Source of the DNA: Lathyrus oleraceus
Taxonomy: Eukaryota > Streptophyta > Magnoliopsida > Fabales > Fabaceae
Reading direction: 5' to 3'
NCBI RefSeq assembly: GCF_024323335.1
Contig: NC_066585.1
Location: 533,472,082 to 533,536,081, forward strand
DNA: 64,000 nucleotides
Every line of letters begins with the position of its first letter. Positions within the stretch are counted from its first letter, which is position 1. The notes under the pieces are model-generated. The model had not been told where the DNA came from. It saw only the letters and a list, made by a program, of their open reading frames with translations, and ran no database searches. Position numbers and translations under genes: made by a program. This document shows, piece after piece, positions 4,069-58,383 of this stretch.

Positions 4069-19161
<15,093 letters not shown>

Positions 19162-40647: not shown

Positions 40648-41919
40648 TGTAAGTTGAGTATGTGCCTAAGGGGGGGGGGGGGGGGGGGGGGGGGGGAATT
40701 ATCTTCTTTGTGAACTTTTTCCGATTTTAAGAAAACTTGTTCTTTCTTTGCTGGTTTGGTTATGCAATGAACGGTGAAGTGCAGAAAGTAAAGAACACAA
40801 AGAGATATCCTGGTTCCCCTCACAGATCGAGAGTACTCCAGTCCCCTTTCAATATGAAAGAGATTTTACTATTATTAGGACTTTTATAAGACTCTTCCTA
40901 GTCTTTCTATATAGACACTAACAGTCACACCAAGGACAATCCTCTTGGATTTTTCACTAAGTTCAAAAAGAGAACAATCCTCCCTTTTAATGAACCTTTT
41001 GTTTCCAACAATCCTGGACAACAAGGACAAAGCAACAATATGAGATTTTACAAGTTTTTGACAAATGGAATAATCTACCAATCTATTGATTGATCTTCTC
41101 CTTTAAAGTAATCAAACTTCTTTATGATAAACATGTGCTCTAATGATGATATGGATGAAACTATATGAATGTGTATGAAAATTCTGTGTAAAAAGTTTCA
41201 CTAGAAAATTTAATCAAGAACACTTGAAATAATTTTCAAAAGATGAATGAAGAAGATTGTTTGAAAATATTTGTGAAAAATGAGGTGTGCTTAAATTCTG
41301 CATAAATGTGTTATATATAACCCTTAGACACCTCTCTAAATGGTTATGATACATGAAAGGATGCCATGCTTCAAGAACACACTTCAGAAAAAATTTCATG
41401 AAAGAATGCAATGTTTTCTGCACTAGTTCAGTGTAATCGATTACCTAATATGGTGTAATCGGTTACACCTGAGCATACGTTTAAATTTTTTGAAAAAATA
41501 AACTGTGTAATTGATTACCCAAAAGATGTAATCGACTACATGCTGTAAAAATTGTCTCACAGGGCAGCACACATAGCTGGTAATCTATTACCTTAATACT
41601 GGTAACCGATTACCAAGGTAATAGATTACCACACAGAATGGCAAAATGCATTTGAAATTGAAGTGAATGCCAAATGGAAAAGTTTAAGAGACCTAAACAG
41701 CCAAGATATGTATGGATGATAAAAACTAGAGCACTTGACTTATCATAGAGAGGTTGAGAGCTTAATACCTTAACACTTTGATCAAATCAATAACAATCTT
41801 CAAGACTTTCAAATGCTTTTAAAAGAGAAGTGTGTGCTTGAGTCTTGAGGAATTCTTTTTGCAATGCATATTTGTTGAGCATGTCTTCATCAAAACACTT
41901 TCAGAAGCTTGTCTTTACA
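40648..41919 (-). repeat. 3' LTR of the Sirevirus-like element
   Basis: 1272 bp, matching 49084-50348. On the minus strand it starts TGTAAAGACAAGC and ends CAACTTACA. It contains the palindrome array (41433-41629), a TATA box TTATATATAA at 41311-41320 about 113 bp downstream of the array, and a C-run (27 G on the + strand, 40670-40696) about 20 bp from its 3' end. Confidence 0.93.
41433..41629 (-). promoter_or_regulatory. Palindrome array in the 3' LTR
   Basis: GTAATCGATTAC-type 12-mers start at 41433, 41455, 41507, 41528, 41580, 41602 and 41618. Members of a pair are 21-22 bp apart and successive pairs start 73-74 bp apart. The array sits upstream of the TATATATAA of this LTR in the direction of transcription. 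A two-helical-turn spacing suggests paired binding of a dimeric factor on one DNA face, which is inference. Confidence 0.75.
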
Positions 41920-42111
41920 TTCTCCCCTTTTTTGATGATGACAACTCTTTATTGAAAATTTTATCCAATTTGCTTTCTCTAACAAATGAAAACTCCCCCT
42001 TGATTGAATCTCCCCCTTGATCCAAGATTGGGATTTTTAAAGGATTTGTTAGCTGCATTGTTAGAGAGACAAACAATATATAACAACAAAAAATACATCT
42101 TCTCCCCCTTT
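41920..42111 (-). other. Multiple polypurine tracts before the 3' LTR
   Basis: On the minus strand, AAAAAAGGGGAGAA (41920-41933) directly abuts the LTR and is the expected primer for plus-strand synthesis. Three more GGGGGAG-type tracts lie upstream at about 41993-42003, 42010-42019 and 42100-42111. Multiple conserved purine tracts before the 3' LTR are a described trait of the Sirevirus genus, supporting that assignment. Confidence 0.8.
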
Positions 42112-42310: not shown

Positions 42311-43438
42311 TTAGTCACTTTTCGACATTCCCATATCCTCATCGTCTTCTCCTTGATCTTCATCACTCATCTCTGGGTTTTGGGATTTTTTAAGGTTTTC
42401 CAAAAGTCTTTTGATAGAAGCCATTTCAAATTTTTGCTCACAATAATTTTTCATCATAGTAGTCTCAACTGAGCAGATTTTCTTGTAGAGGACTTCATTT
42501 GAATATCCTCCTTCTGGAGCCGGTGCAGGAGCATTTGAAGAGGTTGAGGATTCATCCTTGTATTTATACATACCATCCATGTCCAAAAAGATACCAGTAT
42601 TCCTAACCGATGTTGAAGCGTTGATTTCATATTCCTTTGCAGTCATCTTCTTTTTTGGTTCCCTTTTCAGATAAATACCACATCCTTCCAAGATTTTGGT
42701 GATTAGCCTAGCATAGGGTAATCCACCAGTTAGGGATTGCTGATGCTTAATGTGGTACATGATGGTATATGCTCAATTAACCTGAATCTTGTTTTTGATA
42801 GCATACATAAGTTGTAATTTGAGATCACCAATTTGAGAGTGACTTGAGTGTTTAGGCATTAAAATATAAGAAATCAAGTAATGAAGCATCCTATCATTTA
42901 TGGTCAAATTCTTTGAAAATAAAAGTACTCGAGAAGAGGTTGGATTATTCTTACCAAGAATAGATTGCTGAGAGACACGACAGATGTGAAAGAAATAGTC
43001 CATCTTACTATAACCTTCCCATTCCGGGACTAACCCATGATGAAAAGCTTGACCCTCATACAGGATTCCCAAACAGTTCCCAAAAGCTTCTAAATCCAAA
43101 ATAATTTTAATATTCTTAACCTTATAGGTTAGGACATCCTTAACACTAGGAACAATAACCAGATTTGCATAAAAATCTTTAACCAAATCCGGGTAAAAAT
43201 TTCCACAGTCGAAAACCATAGAGTATACTCCTTGTCGTCTCAAGAATTTAGGAAAATCAAAACTATGAGAAGGGAAAGAGGAGAGGTTACCATATTTCAC
43301 CGACATAATGGACCGATTCCGGAAATCAAACGTAAGTCTCCTGGTTTTGAGGGATGGAGCATGTTGAGCAACTTCTTGATGTTCTGAGCTACCTTCATCA
43401 ATTTGGGTTTTTCCTTTATCTTTCCTTGATGGAGCCAT
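42311..43438 (-). CDS. Third ORF after pol: envelope-like / plant putative transposon protein, one internal stop
   Basis: The minus-strand frame from the ATG at 43438 to the stop at 42311 covers 376 codons, interrupted by a single in-frame TGA at 42773-42775. The two halves (221 and 149 codons) share one frame. The N-terminus is basic and hydrophilic (M-A-P-S-R-K-D-K-G-K). The middle has features of the plant putative transposon/envelope-like family (F-Y-A-N-L, then L-G-I-L-Y-E-G). The C-terminal part has a short heptad-like helix and a very acidic tail rich in D and E. No clear signal peptide or membrane segment is visible, so an envelope function is not supported by sequence. It lies about 750 bp after the RNase H end, where Sireviruses carry their extra gene. 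Its biochemical role is unknown. Confidence 0.75.
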
Positions 43439-43674
43439 GGGAGCTGGAAAAGTTAGGGTTTTTAGGAAAGATTTTTGGTTTGGGGTTTGGAAGGAGTTTG
43501 GGGAAGAGAGAGTTAAAGTATAGAAAGGTTTGTAAGTTGGGTTTTAATGGAGTTTAGGTTATGGAGATAAATGAGAGAGGAGAAGTTTGAAGATTTATGG
43601 TAGATGAAGAGTTAAAGGGTTTAGAGCAAAAGAATATTGGAAAGTGATAAATGAAAGTTGTATAAAAAAATTGA

Positions 43675-43929
43675 GTATAAATATTTAACAAAAAAAACAC
43701 TTATCCAAAAGACACAAATTTAATTAAAAAATCTGAAACGATCAGGTGTAATCGATTACCCAGAGAGGTGTAATCGGTTACACCATAAAATAGAGACATA
43801 AAGGAGTCACGTAACAGGGATGTAATCGATTACACCTAGAGTGGTAATCTATTACTTCATAAACAGAAACAATAGTGAATCACATAATCAGGGACGTAAT
43901 CGATTACACCCAAAGTGGTAATCGATTAC
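43675..43929 (-). promoter_or_regulatory. Internal palindrome array and TATA-like box upstream of the third ORF
   Basis: Six GTAATCGATTAC-type 12-mers start at 43748, 43769, 43822, 43843, 43896 and 43918. Pair spacing is 21-22 bp and the pair-to-pair period is 74 bp, as in the LTRs, although the spacer sequences differ. On the minus strand ATATTTATA at 43676-43684 lies about 64 bp downstream of the array and about 240 bp before the third-ORF ATG. This is a candidate internal promoter; function is inference. Confidence 0.6.
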
Positions 43930-44199: not shown

Positions 44200-47100
44200 C
44201 ATATAAAATCCCAAGTTTCCTTCGAATTTTGTAAAACGGTTCTCGTGCCAATGGTTTTGTGAAGATATCGGCGAGTTGATTATGAATATCCACAAATATG
44301 ACTTTGACATCTCCTTGAAGCATGCGATCACGAAGAAAATGATGTCGAATGTCAATATGTTTGGTTCTTTAGTGCATGACCAAATTCTTTGTAATATTTA
44401 TCGCACTTGTGTTGTCACAACATAGAGGAATGCCTCCAAGATCGAGTCCGTAGTCACAAAGTTGTTGCTTAAGCCAAAATATTTGTGCACAACAACTACC
44501 TGCTACTATGTATTTTGCTTCGGTCGTGCTAAGAGAAACACATGCTTGTTTCTTGCAAGCCCATGATACTAATGCATTTCTAAGAATGTGACATGTACCA
44601 CTGGTGCTCTTTCTATCAGTTTTACTTTCTGCATAATCAGCGTCAGAATAACCAACTAAATTGCAAATACTACCTTTAAGATATCATAGACCGACATTTA
44701 TTGTTTCTTTGAGATACTTCATGATCCTTTTAACAACGGTGAGATTTGATTCCTTTGGATTGGCTTGAAAACACGCACAAAGACACACATTGAACATTAT
44801 ATCAGGACAACTTGTCGTCAAATAAAGTTAGGAACCAATCATACCTCGATACTTTGTGATATCAATCAAAACACCTGATTCATCTTGATCAACATAAGAT
44901 TAGGATCCCATTGGAGTAGACACTACCTTGCAAGTTGCAACTATCCATGTCGAATCTTTTCAGCAACTCTTTGCAGTACTTTGATTGGTTGATGAAGATG
45001 CCATCCTTTATTTGCTTAATTTGGAGTCCAAGAAAATTGTTCATCTTATCCATCACGGACATCTCGATTTCTCTTTGCATCATTAATGAAAATTCTTCAG
45101 ACATTTCTTTGTTTGTTGAGCCGAATATGATGTCGTCAACGTAGACTTGAACCAATAAAATGTTACCTTTTATTTTCTTAATAAACAAGGTATTGTCAAC
45201 TTTACCTTTTTCAAATCCCTTTTCACAAAGAAAGTTGTTGAGACGATCATACCATGCTCTTAGTGCTTGCTTTAGGCCATAAAGAGCTTTCCTTAACTTG
45301 AAAACATGCGAAGGATTTTGAAGTCTTCAAAGCCCGAGGGTTGTTTGACATAGACTTCTTCATTGATGTAGCCATTCAAGAATGCACTCATGACATCCAT
45401 TTAGAATAACTGGAAATTAATTAACATGCATAAGCAAGTAATAAATGAATAACTTCTAACCTTGCAACCGAAACGAACGTTTCTTCAAAATTAATGCCTT
45501 CCTCTTGATTGTATCCTTGGGCCACCAACCTTGCTTTGTTTCGAACAATTATACCATTCTCGTCAAGCTTGTTCTTAAACACCCATCTGGTACCTATGAT
45601 GTGTTTACCACTTGGCCTAGGGACAAGTTCCTAAACTTGATTGCTTTCAAATTGGTTTAACTCTTCTTGCATAGAAATTATCCATTGGTCGTCACCTAAA
45701 GCTTCATCAACTTTAGAGGGTTCAATTTGTGAAAAAAATGCCATATTTAAGCATGCATCTTTCAGATTTAATCTTGTTGCAACGCCTTGACTAATATCAC
45801 CAATGACTTTATCAATTGGATGATCTCTATGAGTTCTCCATTCTTTAGGCAGGTCATTAGCATCTGACTTTTGTTGAATTTGTTCTTCATGATGTTCCAT
45901 TTGATTATCATTGATGCCTTTGTAAGTATCTTCTTGAGGAACATCTACATTATCATCATCATCATCACATAAAACAACATCCTCCTTGGGAGGGGTAGTT
46001 TCATCGAAAGAAACATGCATATATTCTTCAATAGTTAAAGTTCGTTTATTATAAATTTTATATGCTTTACTAGAGAGAGAATACCCAAGAAAAATACCTT
46101 CATCGAACTTTTCATCAAACTTACCAAGGTTGTCTTTGTCATTGTTTAAGACAAAGCATTTGCATCCAAATATATGAAAGTAAGAGATGTTTGGTTTCCT
46201 TCCTTTGAAGAGTTCATAAGGGGTCTTTTTCAAGATAGGTCTAATAATAATTCTATTACTTACATAGCAAGTCGTGCTTACCGTATCCTCCCAAAAATAC
46301 TTTGAAATATTTGAGTCGCTAAGCATTGTTTTTGCAAGTTCCACAAGTGATCTATTCTTTCTCTCCACCACTCCATTTTATTGAGGAGTCCTTGGTGCCG
46401 AGAAATTATGAAATATTCCATGTTCTTCGTAAAACTCTTTGAATGAGGCATTTTGAAATTCTCCACCATGGTCGCTTCTTATGGAGGCAATAGTTAGAGA
46501 TTTCTCATTTTGAATTTGCTTTTCATATTTCTTGAACGCCTTGAATGCATCACTTTTCTGCACTAAGAAGAATGTCCAAGTGTATCTAGAGAAATCATCA
46601 ATAATAACTAAAGCATACACATTACCTCTAAAGTTTCTTGTTCTTGATGGACCAAATAAGTCCATATGCAACAATTGTAGTAGCCTTGTAGTGGACACCA
46701 CATTCTTTGATGTGAAAGTTTATTTGGTTTATTTTCCCTTTTTACATGCATCACATAATCTATATTTGGAAAACTTTATCTTAGGCAATCCAATAACAAG
46801 ATCATGCTTTATTAGTTTATTCAAATGTTTCATATGAATATGAGCGAATCTTTTATGCCAACGCCAAGACTCATTATTGTTTGCCATAAGACATTTTACT
46901 TTCAAAGACACATCATCAAGGGAAATTATAAATATATTATTAAATATCTTACATTTGAGTTTTATCTCATGTGAGACTTCATCTTCAATCAAGTATTCAT
47001 CCTTGATGAACTTGATTTTGAAGCCTTTGTCACAAAGTTGACTAATACTTAGAAGATTGTGCTTTAGTCCTTCGACATAAAGGACATCTTCAATGGATGT

Positions 47101-47662
47101 GAAAGGTAGTGCTCCAACTTTTCCTATACCAAGAATTCCCCCTTTGTTGTTATCACCATAAGCGACATAACCCCTGGCCTTTAATGCTAGATTTGAAAAT
47201 TTGTTAATGTCTCCCGTCATATGCTTGGAACAACCACTATCAAGATACCAAAGGTTTGATGTGGTTTTCAAGCATACCTACAAAACAAAATTACGTTTGA
47301 TTAGGTACCCAAATTGCTTTGGGTCCTTCATAATTAGTGTCTTTCTTTACCCACACGTAATGACCACTTGCTATGCTAAAGTTTCTAACATAGCATGCAT
47401 TAGGAGTATGACCAACTATTCCATAATAAAAACAAGTAGGTTCAAAATTGATTCTATATCTAGGAACATACGATTTATTTTTAGAAAATCTTTTTCTTTT
47501 AGGATAGTGATGAACATCTTTTGGCTTGTTTACTTTCTCTTTGGATGGTTGGCCATTAGCTTTAAGAAAGATAGTTTTACTAGAACTTGGTTTGGAAAAC
47601 TTTGAATAACCAAGTCCACTTTTGTCATTGGAATATCTTTGTTGGCTAAGGACACCTTCCAA
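44200..47662 (-). pseudogene. Broken copia pol (protease, integrase, reverse transcriptase, RNase H)
   Basis: Minus-strand pieces in order. Protease has L-D-S-G-C-S-K-H-M-T-G near 47240, and the GAG-pre-integrase has R-W-H-K-R-F-A-H near 46860. The integrase core has D-L-F-G-P near 46660, D-D-F-S-R-Y-T-W near 46590 and D-H-G-G-E-F near 46470. The reverse transcriptase has YVDDIIFGSTN near 45130 and F-L-G-L-Q-I near 45020. RNase H ends in L-A-D-I-F-T-K-P-L near 44260. At least two frame changes (near 47280 and between 45630 and 45190) and several stops (near 46715, 46375 and 44370) break it. Reverse-transcriptase wording is of the SIRE1/Maximus type. Confidence 0.9.
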
Positions 47663-47872: not shown

Positions 47873-49036
47873 TCATTTTTTAAGAAGTTCATTTATAGCA
47901 TCTTGTGCATCACTATCATAAAGATAAAAGTCATTACTAACCTCATCTTCTTCATCGTCAGAACGGTGTGAAGCCATTAATGCTAAATTTTCACATTCGT
48001 CGCTTTTCGATCCGGATGAAGAACTTATCTCATTATCTTCCCATGCAACATATGTCTTTTTATTCTTGAGTTCCTTCTTTCCTTTAAAGCCACCTTTCTC
48101 TGAGAGTTTCGGACAATCCGACTTTATATGACCTTGCTTTCCACATTCATAGCATGTGACATCTTGTGTAGATGTGGAAACCTCCATTTTCCTGAAATAT
48201 TTATTTCTTTTTGCATAAAAGGATTTGTCATTTTTAGAAAAAAACTTACCAAGTCTTTTAATAAGGAGCATCAAATTTTCATCTTCCTCCGGTGCGTCAT
48301 CATCTTTATCTTCCTTTGACTCTACCTTCAAAGCAATTCCTTTGAATTTCTTCTCTTGACTTTCATGTTTTTCAAGTCTTCCAAGTTCAAGTTCATGTTC
48401 TTGGAGTTTTCCGAATAATGATGCAGACGTCATAGTAGAAAGACTTTTCTTCTCTAATATGACCATTACTTTTGATTGCCATTCTCTAGTCAATGATCTT
48501 AGCACTTTAAGATTGAGATCATCATTTGTAAAGGTCTTTCCGAGAGCAATTAAATGGTTCATCAAGTGAACAAATCTTTTCTGCAATGCAACAATGGATT
48601 CTCCGGGATGCATTATGAACATTTCATATTCCTGACTCAATGTGTTTAATCTAGATCTTTTAACTTCAGCGGTTCCTTCTTGAGTCTCCACCAAAGTGTC
48701 CCATATTTCTTTTGCCGATTTACATTGAGATATGAGGAAGAACTCATCCATACTTAATGCACTTTGAAGAATATTGATAGCTTTCTTTTCATTAAGTATT
48801 CTTTTCTTATCGTCTTCGTCATATGAACTTTTAACCTTCGGAGTGCCAACACCATTAACCACACTAGTTGGATTATGTGGACCATTTTCAACGGTTTCCC
48901 ATATATCATCTCCTTGTGCTTCTAAATATGCTTTCATGCGGATTTCCAGAAGTCAAAATATTCTCCAAAAAAATAGAGGGGGTTTGTTGCTACTACCACC
49001 ATCTTTAAAAACCGGATTTACGCTTACGGAAGTCAT
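47873..49036 (-). pseudogene. Copia gag with CCHC zinc knuckle, frameshifted near its start
   Basis: Nucleocapsid/capsid polyprotein. The natural start is the minus-strand ATG at 49036, only 33 bp after the primer site, but a frame change near 48970 separates the first two dozen codons from the main frame. From 48937 a 354-codon frame is uninterrupted. It carries the UBN2/gag core (A-K-E-I-W-D-T-L, L-S-Q-E-Y-E-M-F, L-R-S-L) and the zinc knuckle CYECGKQGHIKSDC at about residues 262-275. A lysine/glutamate-rich region lies on both sides. Intact gags of this lineage continue with a coiled coil, also visible near 47873. Confidence 0.9.
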
Positions 49037-49083: not shown

Positions 49084-50348
49084 TGTAAGTTGAGTATGCG
49101 CCTAAGAGGGGGGGGGGGGAGGGGGGGAGGTGTTGAATTAGGTTCTTTGTGAACTTTTTCCGATTTTAAGGAAACTTGTTCTTTCTTTTCTGGTTTGGTT
49201 ATGCAATGAATGGTAAATTAGAAAAAGTAAAGAACACAGAGAGCTATCCTAGTTCCCCTCACAGATCGAGAGTACTCCAGTCCTCTTTCAATATGAAAGA
49301 GATTTTACTATTATTAGGACTTTTACAAGACTCTTCCTAGTCTTTCTATATAGACACTAACAGTCACACCAAGAACAATCCTCTTGGATTTTTCACTAAG
49401 TTCAAAAAGAGAACAATCCTCCCTTTTAATGAACCTTTTGTTTTCAACAATCCTGGACAACAAGGACAAAGAAACAATATGAGATTTTACAAGTTTTTGA
49501 CAAATGGAATAATCTATCAATCTATTGATTGATCTTTTTCGTTAAAGTAATCAAACTTCTTTATGACAAATAAGTGCTCTAATGATGATATGGATGAAAC
49601 TATATGAATGTGTATGAAAATTCGGTGTAAAAAGTTTCACCAGAAAATTTAATCAAGAACACTTGAAATAATTTTCAAAAGATGAATGAACAAGATTGTT
49701 GAAAATATTTGTGAAGAATGAGGTGTGTTCAAATTCTGCATAAATGTGTTATATATAACCCTTAAACACCTCTCTAAATGGTTATGATACATGAAAGGAT
49801 GTCATGCTTCAAGAACACACTTCATAAAGAATTTTCATGAAAGAATGCAATATTTTCTGTCATTGGTTCAATGGCAATCGATTACCCAATATGGTGTAAT
49901 TGGTTACACCTGAGCCAACATTTAAATTTTTTGAAAAAATGAATTGTGGAATCGATTATCCAAAAGATATAATCGATTACATGCGGTAAAAATTGTCTCA
50001 CAGGGCAACACGCATAACTGGTAATCGATTACCTTGATACTAGTAACCGATTACCACACAGACAGAATGACAGAATGCATTTGAAATTGAAGTGAATGTC
50101 AAACGGAAAAGTTTAAGAGACCTAAACAACCAAGATATGTATGGATGAGAAAAACTAGAGCACTTGACTTATCATAGAGAGATTGAGAACTTAATATCTT
50201 AACACTTTGATCAAATCAATAGTAATCTTCAAGACTTTGAAATACTTTTAAAAGAGAAGCTCGTGCTTGAGTCTTGAGGCATTCTTTTTGCAATGCATAT
50301 TTGTTGAGCATGTCTTCATCAAAACACTTTGAGAAGCTTGTCTTCACA
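49084..50348 (-). repeat. 5' LTR of the Sirevirus-like element
   Basis: 1265 bp, matching 40648-41919. On the minus strand it starts TGTGAAGACAAGC and ends CAACTTACA. TATATATAA is at 49749-49758, and the palindrome array lies upstream of it at 49874-50056. The G/C-run near 49107-49130 is interrupted by A residues, unlike the pure run in the other LTR. Confidence 0.93.
49874..50056 (-). promoter_or_regulatory. Palindrome array in the 5' LTR
   Basis: AATCGATTAC-type cores start at about 49874, 49895, 49948, 49969, 50021 and 50043, giving the same 21-22 bp pairing and about 74-bp period as in the other LTR. Individual motifs carry different substitutions from the partner LTR, but the register is kept. 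It is placed about 116 bp upstream of the LTR TATA box. Confidence 0.75.

Positions 50349-58248: not shown

Positions 58249-58383
<135 letters not shown>

What the first reader, a model, noticed from the sequence alone, without database searches (positions are those of the whole stretch)
43675..43929. Internal copy of the LTR palindrome code in front of the third ORF: candidate second promoter
Six GTAATCGATTAC-type palindromes form three pairs (21-22 bp within a pair) repeating every 74 bp, 310-490 bp upstream of the third-ORF ATG, with a TATA-like ATATTTATA between. Both LTRs carry arrays with the same pairing and period, 113-116 bp upstream of the LTR TATA box. The spacer DNA of the internal array differs from that of the LTRs while motif, pairing and period are kept. 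This suggests selection on the arrangement rather than a simple recent duplication. Inference: the third ORF may be transcribed from its own promoter under the same host factor as the genomic RNA, instead of by readthrough or splicing.
Basis: partly seen in the sequence, partly recalled or inferred. Interest (0 to 1): 0.85.

Follow-up and report, generated by a model that had tools for sequence, protein, structure and literature searches.

The report
Paired palindrome array before retrotransposon ORF3
A pea retrotransposon carries the same evenly spaced palindromes in its ends and in front of its extra gene, probably switch sites for a plant protein; this kind of double array was already described in related elements, so it is a well-supported new example, not a new system.

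Summary
Six GTAATCGATTAC-type sites lie at 43748-43929 as three pairs (22 bp) with a 74-bp period, 310-491 bp upstream of the ORF3 ATG. Both LTRs carry matching arrays. Paired linker arrays occur upstream of ORF3 in 28 of 30 close copies, the window's own included. Two copies of a family with ORF3 only 44-45% identical also have motif arrays there. LTR and linker long spacers are unrelated, so this is no recent LTR duplication; the linker period itself comes from tandem duplication of a 74-bp unit.
The second-promoter reading is only partly supported. The TATA-like motif is not conserved (10 of 28; LTRs 22 of 25). A nearly G-free leader of about 200 nt before ORF3 (28 of 30) suits a separate mRNA, but a splice-acceptor-like AG next to the ATG (21 of 29) keeps splicing open. 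Bousios et al. 2010 (PMC2829016) already reported such palindromes in Sirevirus LTRs and upstream of ENV, with the internal-promoter hypothesis. This is a new member of that kind.

The parts
43748..43929 (-). Linker palindrome array: three pairs of 12-mers, 22 bp apart in a pair, period 74 bp
43439..43674 (-). Putative ORF3 leader: almost no G and no ATG in this copy; splice-acceptor-like TTTTCCAG ends 5 nt before the ATG
43675..43688 (-).
42773..43438 (-). ORF3, first 221 codons (weak PF20167); ends at an in-frame stop in this copy, the frame continues open to 42311
41433..41629 (-). 3' LTR palindrome array, three pairs plus a seventh site
49874..50054 (-). 5' LTR palindrome array, three pairs
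41308..41322 (-). 3' LTR TATA box (GGTTATATATAACAC), 113 bp past the array
49746..49760 (-). 5' LTR TATA box
40648..41919 (-). 3' LTR (TG...CA), flanked by AGAAA
49084..50348 (-). 5' LTR (TG...CA), flanked by AGAAA
49070..49082 (-). Primer-binding-site-like TTGGCATCAGAGC (assignment recalled)
41922..42109 (-). Polypurine tracts: AGGGGGAG at 42102, 42010, 41993; terminal AGGGGAG at 41922
47873..48937 (-). gag (Retrotran_gag_2, zf-CCHC)
44889..47271 (-). pol pieces: Pol_BBD and pre-integrase, rve, SH3, RVT_2 (frame broken in this copy)

Best explanation
The array is a cis-regulatory module of a pea Sirevirus-type retrotransposon. Each 12-mer is a dyad site for a dimeric host DNA-binding protein (inferred). 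The constrained outer halves (GTAA....TTAC) and the same-face spacing (22 bp, about 2 turns; 71-74 bp, about 7 turns) suggest side-by-side dimers on one DNA face (inferred). In the LTR the array sits at a nearly fixed distance, mostly 115-116 bp, upstream of the TATA box and activates genomic RNA (position shown, activity inferred). The linker array is an older, separately evolving copy of that module. It most likely makes ORF3 responsive to the same factor from a TATA-poor start shortly upstream of the G-poor leader (inferred). My confidence is about 0.8 that the sites are protein-binding regulatory DNA, and 0.5 for the full reading with a separate ORF3 start.
For: Paired linker arrays in 28 of 30 copies. 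Pair spacing is 22 in 65, 21 in 2 and 23 in 1 of 68 pairs; period 73-75 in 40 of 40. LTR pairs are 21-22 in 81 of 81; period 72-74 in 51 of 53. No site at <=1 mismatch outside the two places in 121,635 bases. A second family, ORF3 44-45% identical, has motifs at -454, -380, -306 and at -473, -400, -327 of the ORF3 match start, one with an LTR-side motif at +2000. Genome-wide, 5835 exact motifs against 474 for the reversed control; 1113 of 1129 exact pairs with gaps 3-33 have gap 9 or 10. LTR and linker long spacers are unrelated. Outer motif positions are kept at 0.91-1.00, the middle TCGA at 0.81-0.90. The position-specific C5 in the 3'-most pair is in 24 of 28 linker and 24 of 28 LTR arrays. 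LTR TATATA lies 104-117 bp past the array in 24 of 28, 17 of them at 116. <=6 G in the last 200 nt before the ATG in 28 of 30 copies. ORF3 median pairwise dN/dS 0.23 (29 copies, not independent).
Against: No transcript start or binding data. Linker TATTTAT, TATAAA or TATATA at 40-80 bp past the array in 10 of 28 only; looser TATA-like words occur at scattered places. 9 of 29 copies have an ATG in the last 230 nt, 4 of 29 in the last 200. AG at -6/-7 of the ATG in 21 of 29 keeps splicing open. Linker units are tandem copies, so their period is inherited. The motif-versus-flank contrast used ungapped columns, which lowers flank identity; in the gapped alignment the contrast is smaller. In LTRs the 10-bp spacer is as conserved (0.94) as the motif (0.91). 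0 of 3 chromosome-1 copies of the 50-54% ORF3 families have exact motif pairs listed nearby.
Confidence: 0.5

Rival explanations
1. ORF3 is translated from a spliced mRNA that starts in the LTR; the pyrimidine-rich, G-poor stretch ending in TTTTC(C)AG just before the ATG is the 3' splice site, and the array has another role.
For: An AG stands 4-5 nt before the ATG in 21 of 29 copies; in 9 of those 21 it is the only AG in the last 200 nt. Splice acceptors have been predicted for the ENV of BAGY2 and Athila, as cited in PMC2829016.
Against: 8 of 29 copies lack that AG, and 12 of the 21 have another AG within 200 nt. G is depleted in all contexts (AG 40, GA 47, TG 62, GT 52 in 29 copies), not AG alone as an AG-exclusion zone needs. 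It leaves the linker array unexplained.
Confidence: 0.2
2. The linker array is an internal enhancer that boosts the LTR promoters rather than a promoter for ORF3.
For: Same site type, pairing and face as the LTR array; no conserved TATA in the linker.
Against: It lies upstream of ORF3 in both families examined, with a G-poor leader between, seen in the one family whose sequence I hold. In PMC2829016 linker copies occur only with ENV, 77 of 79 upstream of it.
Confidence: 0.17
3. The array acts as RNA or cruciform hairpins (structure, packaging, or a small-RNA source).
For: RNA folds of the window's linker and 3' LTR arrays are far more stable than shuffles (z -7.4 and -6.3). Maize Sirevirus palindromes are small-RNA hotspots (passages of PMC10760457 and PMC5311732).
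Against: The conserved variant makes a C-A mismatch in the local hairpin in 22 of 28 linker and 23 of 28 LTR 3'-most pairs. Changes in the first site are compensated in the second in 4 of 62 (linker) and 2 of 86 (LTR) cases. Small RNAs may map there without being the reason for conservation.
Confidence: 0.07
4. The linker array is a neutral relic of an ancient LTR duplication that expands by unit slippage.
For: Linker units are tandem copies; arrays have 3 pairs in 13, 2 in 14 and 1 in 1 of 28 copies. LTR and linker share the GTAACC variant.
Against: Spacers lost all detectable likeness while motif and spacing stayed; arrays in two families with 44-45% ORF3 identity.
Confidence: 0.06

Closest known systems
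Sirevirus repeated motifs (RM) of Bousios et al. 2010, PMC2829016 (abstract, sections 9 and 10, and passages seen; figures not held)
   Same: Palindromic repeated boxes in the upper LTR, upstream of a TATA box, and again upstream of the ENV-gene in all nine RM-bearing elements of its Table 3 that have ENV; an internal ENV promoter is supported there.
   Different: Their ENV-bearing elements have CGG-CCG cores; here the core is AATCGATT. The paired 22-bp/71-74-bp phasing, the shared position-specific variant and the G-poor leader are not in the text I saw.
Tnd-1 RM ACAATCGATTGT, Table 3 of PMC2829016
   Same: Same AATCGATT core.
   Different: Eight LTR copies, no ENV, no linker copies.
HD-Zip III binding site GTAAT(G/C)ATTAC (passages of PMC3510056 and PMC6320839)
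   Same: Same GTAAT/ATTAC arms, plant homeodomain dimer site.
   Different: One base pair shorter in the centre (11 against 12 bp); no binding tested. A lead only.
L003-type LTR family of the same genome
   Same: Same 12-mer, 22-bp pairs, 71-72-bp period, about 80 bp upstream of a TATAAATAG.
   Different: The fetched 3-kb locus has no blastn match to this element outside the array; lineage not identified.

Membership tests
Sirevirus (Ty1/copia) | copia-type gag and pol domains | tested here: met
   Retrotran_gag_2, zf-CCHC, gag_pre-integrs, rve, SH3_retrovirus, RVT_2
Sirevirus (Ty1/copia) | several AGGGGGAG polypurine tracts clustered near the 3' LTR, terminal one 10 bp from it | tested here: met
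   Three AGGGGGAG at 42102, 42010, 41993, within 0.2 kb; the terminal tract has one G fewer, AGGGGAG, starting 9 bp before the LTR, so the terminal tract is not an exact match
Sirevirus (Ty1/copia) | polyC-rich signal at the 3' end of the LTR | tested here: met
   Run of 27 C in the 3' LTR at 40670-40696, a similar interrupted run in the 5' LTR
Sirevirus (Ty1/copia) | palindromic RM cluster in the upper LTR upstream of a TATA box | tested here: met
Sirevirus (Ty1/copia) | inverted repeat around the PPT/3' LTR junction | not tested
   not examined
Sirevirus RM with linker copies | the same RM upstream of the third ORF | tested here: met
   paired in 28 of 30 copies
Sirevirus RM with linker copies | CGG-CCG core of RMs in ENV-bearing elements | tested here: not met
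   core is AATCGATT, as in Tnd-1
Sirevirus ENV-like gene | transmembrane and coiled-coil domains (PMC3414828 passage) | tested here: not met
   maximal 19-residue hydropathy 1.07 and 0.79 in the two ORF3 pieces, below a usual transmembrane threshold (recalled); coiled coil not tested. The protein resembles PF20167, below its cut-off. So I do not call it ENV
HD-Zip III site | 11-bp GTAAT(G/C)ATTAC | tested here: not met
   12-bp site with CG centre
Internal promoter | transcript 5' ends between array and ATG | not testable with these tools
   no transcript data

The most novel reading that the evidence does not exclude
Pea LTR retrotransposons, including the L003-type LTR family that is unlike this one in sequence, share one host-factor docking grammar: 12-bp dyads two helical turns apart, repeated every seven turns. 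Sirevirus-type elements keep a second copy of it as a true subgenomic promoter that feeds a long, nearly G-free leader made for ORF3 translation.
Probability: 0.25. Interest if true: 0.7.

Novelty: new member of a known kind. Interest (0 to 1): 0.45.

Why it matters
How plant copia elements express a gene behind pol is unsettled; stop suppression, splicing and an internal promoter have been proposed (passages of PMC2829016 and PMC3414828). Here a high-copy family gives a sharply defined array, a clear leader and many natural variants, so the internal-promoter hypothesis can be tested directly by 5'-end mapping and a small reporter set. The motif also gives a bait for finding the host factor, which may serve several LTR families at once.

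Tried and rejected
Recent LTR-to-linker duplication: rejected, long spacers unrelated. Copies lacking the array as counter-example: L045 (=L016) has foreign repeat sequence directly before the ORF3 ATG. Among the 40 listed matches only the locus itself covers the junction, and the foreign end recurs about 6.5 kb upstream on the same strand, so I read it as a nested LTR element, not a natural loss; the far side was not read. L033 keeps only one site. L035 and L047 lose homology to L042 before or within the LTR. Local RNA hairpin: disfavoured. Conserved TATA in the linker: not found. ORF3 as envelope: no hydrophobic segment. An exact-motif scan of viral contigs found nothing. Pooled z-scores for spacer similarity treat related copies as independent and I do not rely on them; several were high, the highest for LTR spacers against the L003-type spacers reversed (15.6) and against family-B LTR spacers (12.1). 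The single-pair permutations are used instead. There, LTR-LTR and linker-linker spacers between the two families are not significant, and family-B linker spacers against L003 reach p 0.001-0.011 among 55 tests, which I leave unexplained. Families with ORF3 at 50-54% identity could not be read.

Full report
What is there. The window is C7:533472082-533536081 of a 3.8-Gb assembly. Those ORF3 relatives in public proteins that bear an organism name are from Lathyrus oleraceus (pea) and lie on contigs with the lengths of this assembly's chromosomes. On the minus strand lies a copia element: LTRs 49084-50348 and 40648-41919, 92% identical, flanked by AGAAA on both sides; gag at 47873-48937; pol in pieces; ORF3 from 43438. 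ORF3 meets an in-frame stop at 42773 and the frame goes on open to 42311, so this copy is decayed. Polypurine tracts, polyC run and LTR palindromes match the Sirevirus description in PMC2829016 (abstract, passages and sections 9 and 10 seen).

The array. The six linker sites are exactly as described. I took the 30 best of 151 ORF3 matches in the genome, the window's own copy included (76-100% identical, which scored 150 of 4829 candidates). The choice is by similarity, so they are one family. At up to 2 mismatches 29 of 30 have linker sites; with the stricter pair rule 28 of 30 have paired linker arrays and 28 of 30 paired LTR arrays. The failures are L045 and L033 (linker) and L035 and L047 (LTR). 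Linker pair spacing: 22 in 65, 21 in 2, 23 in 1 of 68; period 74 in 32, 73 in 6, 75 in 2 of 40. LTR pair spacing: 22 in 61, 21 in 20 of 81; period 74 in 23, 73 in 20, 72 in 8, 66 and 76 once each of 53. Outside the two places there is no site at <=1 mismatch in 121,635 bases.

Genome-wide grammar. The exact 12-mer occurs 5835 times against 474 for its reversed control. Of 1129 exact pairs with gaps of 3-33, 956 have gap 10 and 157 gap 9. Of the 50 listed pairs with gaps 34-64 (of 2250), 48 lie at 49-51 or 71-74 bp start to start and 2 at 64. The listed strings show several unlike spacer types. L003 and L001 are examples with periods 71-72. The 3-kb L003 locus has no blastn match to this element outside the array; among the 40 listed relatives of its LTR body, six same-strand pairs lie 9.0-15.2 kb apart, as two LTRs of one element would. 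I did not identify its lineage.

A second ORF3 family. Two chromosome-1 copies with ORF3 44-45% identical (C1:7245211 and C1:21855892), the two of that class within the listed stretch, have motifs at -454, -380, -306 and -473, -400, -327 of the ORF3 match start; the first has a further motif at +2000, where the LTR array is expected. Family-B long spacers are not detectably related to the window's. For three chromosome-1 copies of 50-54% families (C1:50099030, C1:90041021, C1:120970513) no exact pairs are listed nearby (for the third only reaches that far). One own-family copy, C1:72825861, is also missed by this exact criterion, so the test is weak.

Duplication or constraint. Within the linker, long spacers of neighbouring units are related (normalised score 0.33 against -0.04 shuffled, 13 comparisons); within the LTR they are not (-0.19 against -0.16, 25); linker against LTR they are not (-0.12 against -0.14, 69). 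Single-pair permutations on the window's own spacers agree (linker-linker p 0.0005; linker-LTR p 0.16-0.87). So the linker array grew by tandem duplication of a 74-bp unit, while LTR and linker arrays have been separate long enough for the long spacers to lose all likeness. The 10-bp short spacers of LTR and linker stay more alike than shuffled ones (-0.06 against -0.30, 181 comparisons, not independent), mainly at their edges. Both places share C5 (GTAACC...) at the first site of the 3'-most pair: 24 of 28 linker and 24 of 28 LTR arrays. GTAACCGATTAC also heads pairs in family B in both places. An old common origin with retained function explains this best. Motif identity is 0.92 in linkers (0.95 without the CpG) against about 0.6 in flanks, but those columns are ungapped and the gapped alignment shows less contrast. 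Of 97 linker departures 27 are C-to-T or G-to-A at the CpG, of 129 LTR departures 34, as expected for methylated repeats (recalled).

Promoter, splice or hairpin. LTR: TATATA lies 104-117 bp past the array in 24 of 28, 17 of them at 116 (by the narrower count, 22 of 25). Linker: TATTTAT, TATAAA or TATATA lie 40-80 bp past the array in 10 of 28. But the sense strand between array and ATG turns almost G-free: G is at most 3% in every 20-nt bin from -200 to -21 and 5% in the last, against 12-22% in the bins from -640 to -260 (29 copies). 28 of 30 copies have at most 6 G in the last 200 nt; the exceptions are L045, with foreign sequence there (36 G), and L034 (13 G). 20 of 29 have no ATG in the last 230 nt, 25 of 29 none in the last 200. 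A G-poor, ATG-poor stretch ending at the start codon looks like an mRNA leader. The gag leader in this window is not G-poor (sequence). G-free leaders that favour translation are known from plant RNA viruses (recalled). The same stretch ends in a splice-acceptor-like AG in 21 of 29 copies, so splicing remains; in 9 of those 21 it is the only AG in 200 nt. RNA hairpins are stable in silico, but the conserved C-A mismatch and the near lack of compensation speak against them as the selected feature.

What is known. A full-text search for GTAATCGATTAC found 3 papers, all on bacteria (listing). AATCGATT with retrotransposon found 11, of which PMC2829016 is the only one about plant retrotransposons by its title (listing only for the other ten). 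PMC2829016 describes palindromic RMs in 13 Sireviruses, linker copies in the nine with ENV (77 of 79 upstream of it), and supports an internal promoter while not conclusively identifying one. What this locus adds is an AATCGATT core in an ORF3-bearing element, the strict phasing, the shared position-specific variant, the G-poor leader, and an LTR family unlike it in sequence that carries the same array. HD-Zip III sites (passages of PMC3510056 and PMC6320839) share the arms but are one base pair shorter.

Noticed in passing
L003:1268-1860: An LTR with no blastn match to this element outside the array (start TGTCATACCCC, TATAAATAG about 80 bp past the array) carries eight of the same palindromes at 22/71-72 bp; high copy (904 first-look candidates).
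   Followed up: partly
L045, ORF3 start: A foreign repeat ends within about 5 bp of the ORF3 ATG; its end recurs about 6.5 kb upstream on the same strand, so probably a nested LTR element.
   Followed up: partly
G000 C1:4508646-4515792: Two LTR-type arrays 7 kb apart with a linker-type array only 1 kb from one of them: possibly an element with a shortened or missing ORF3 but a kept linker array.
   Followed up: no
window 15474-15577 and 58249-58383: Short repeats that match each other in both orientations at 94-100%.
   Followed up: no
window 35531 and 35654: Two further GTAATCGATTAC-like sites (1 and 2 mismatches) 123 bp apart outside the element.
   Followed up: no
window 16987-17135: A perfect 72-bp direct repeat with a 77-bp period.
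   Followed up: no
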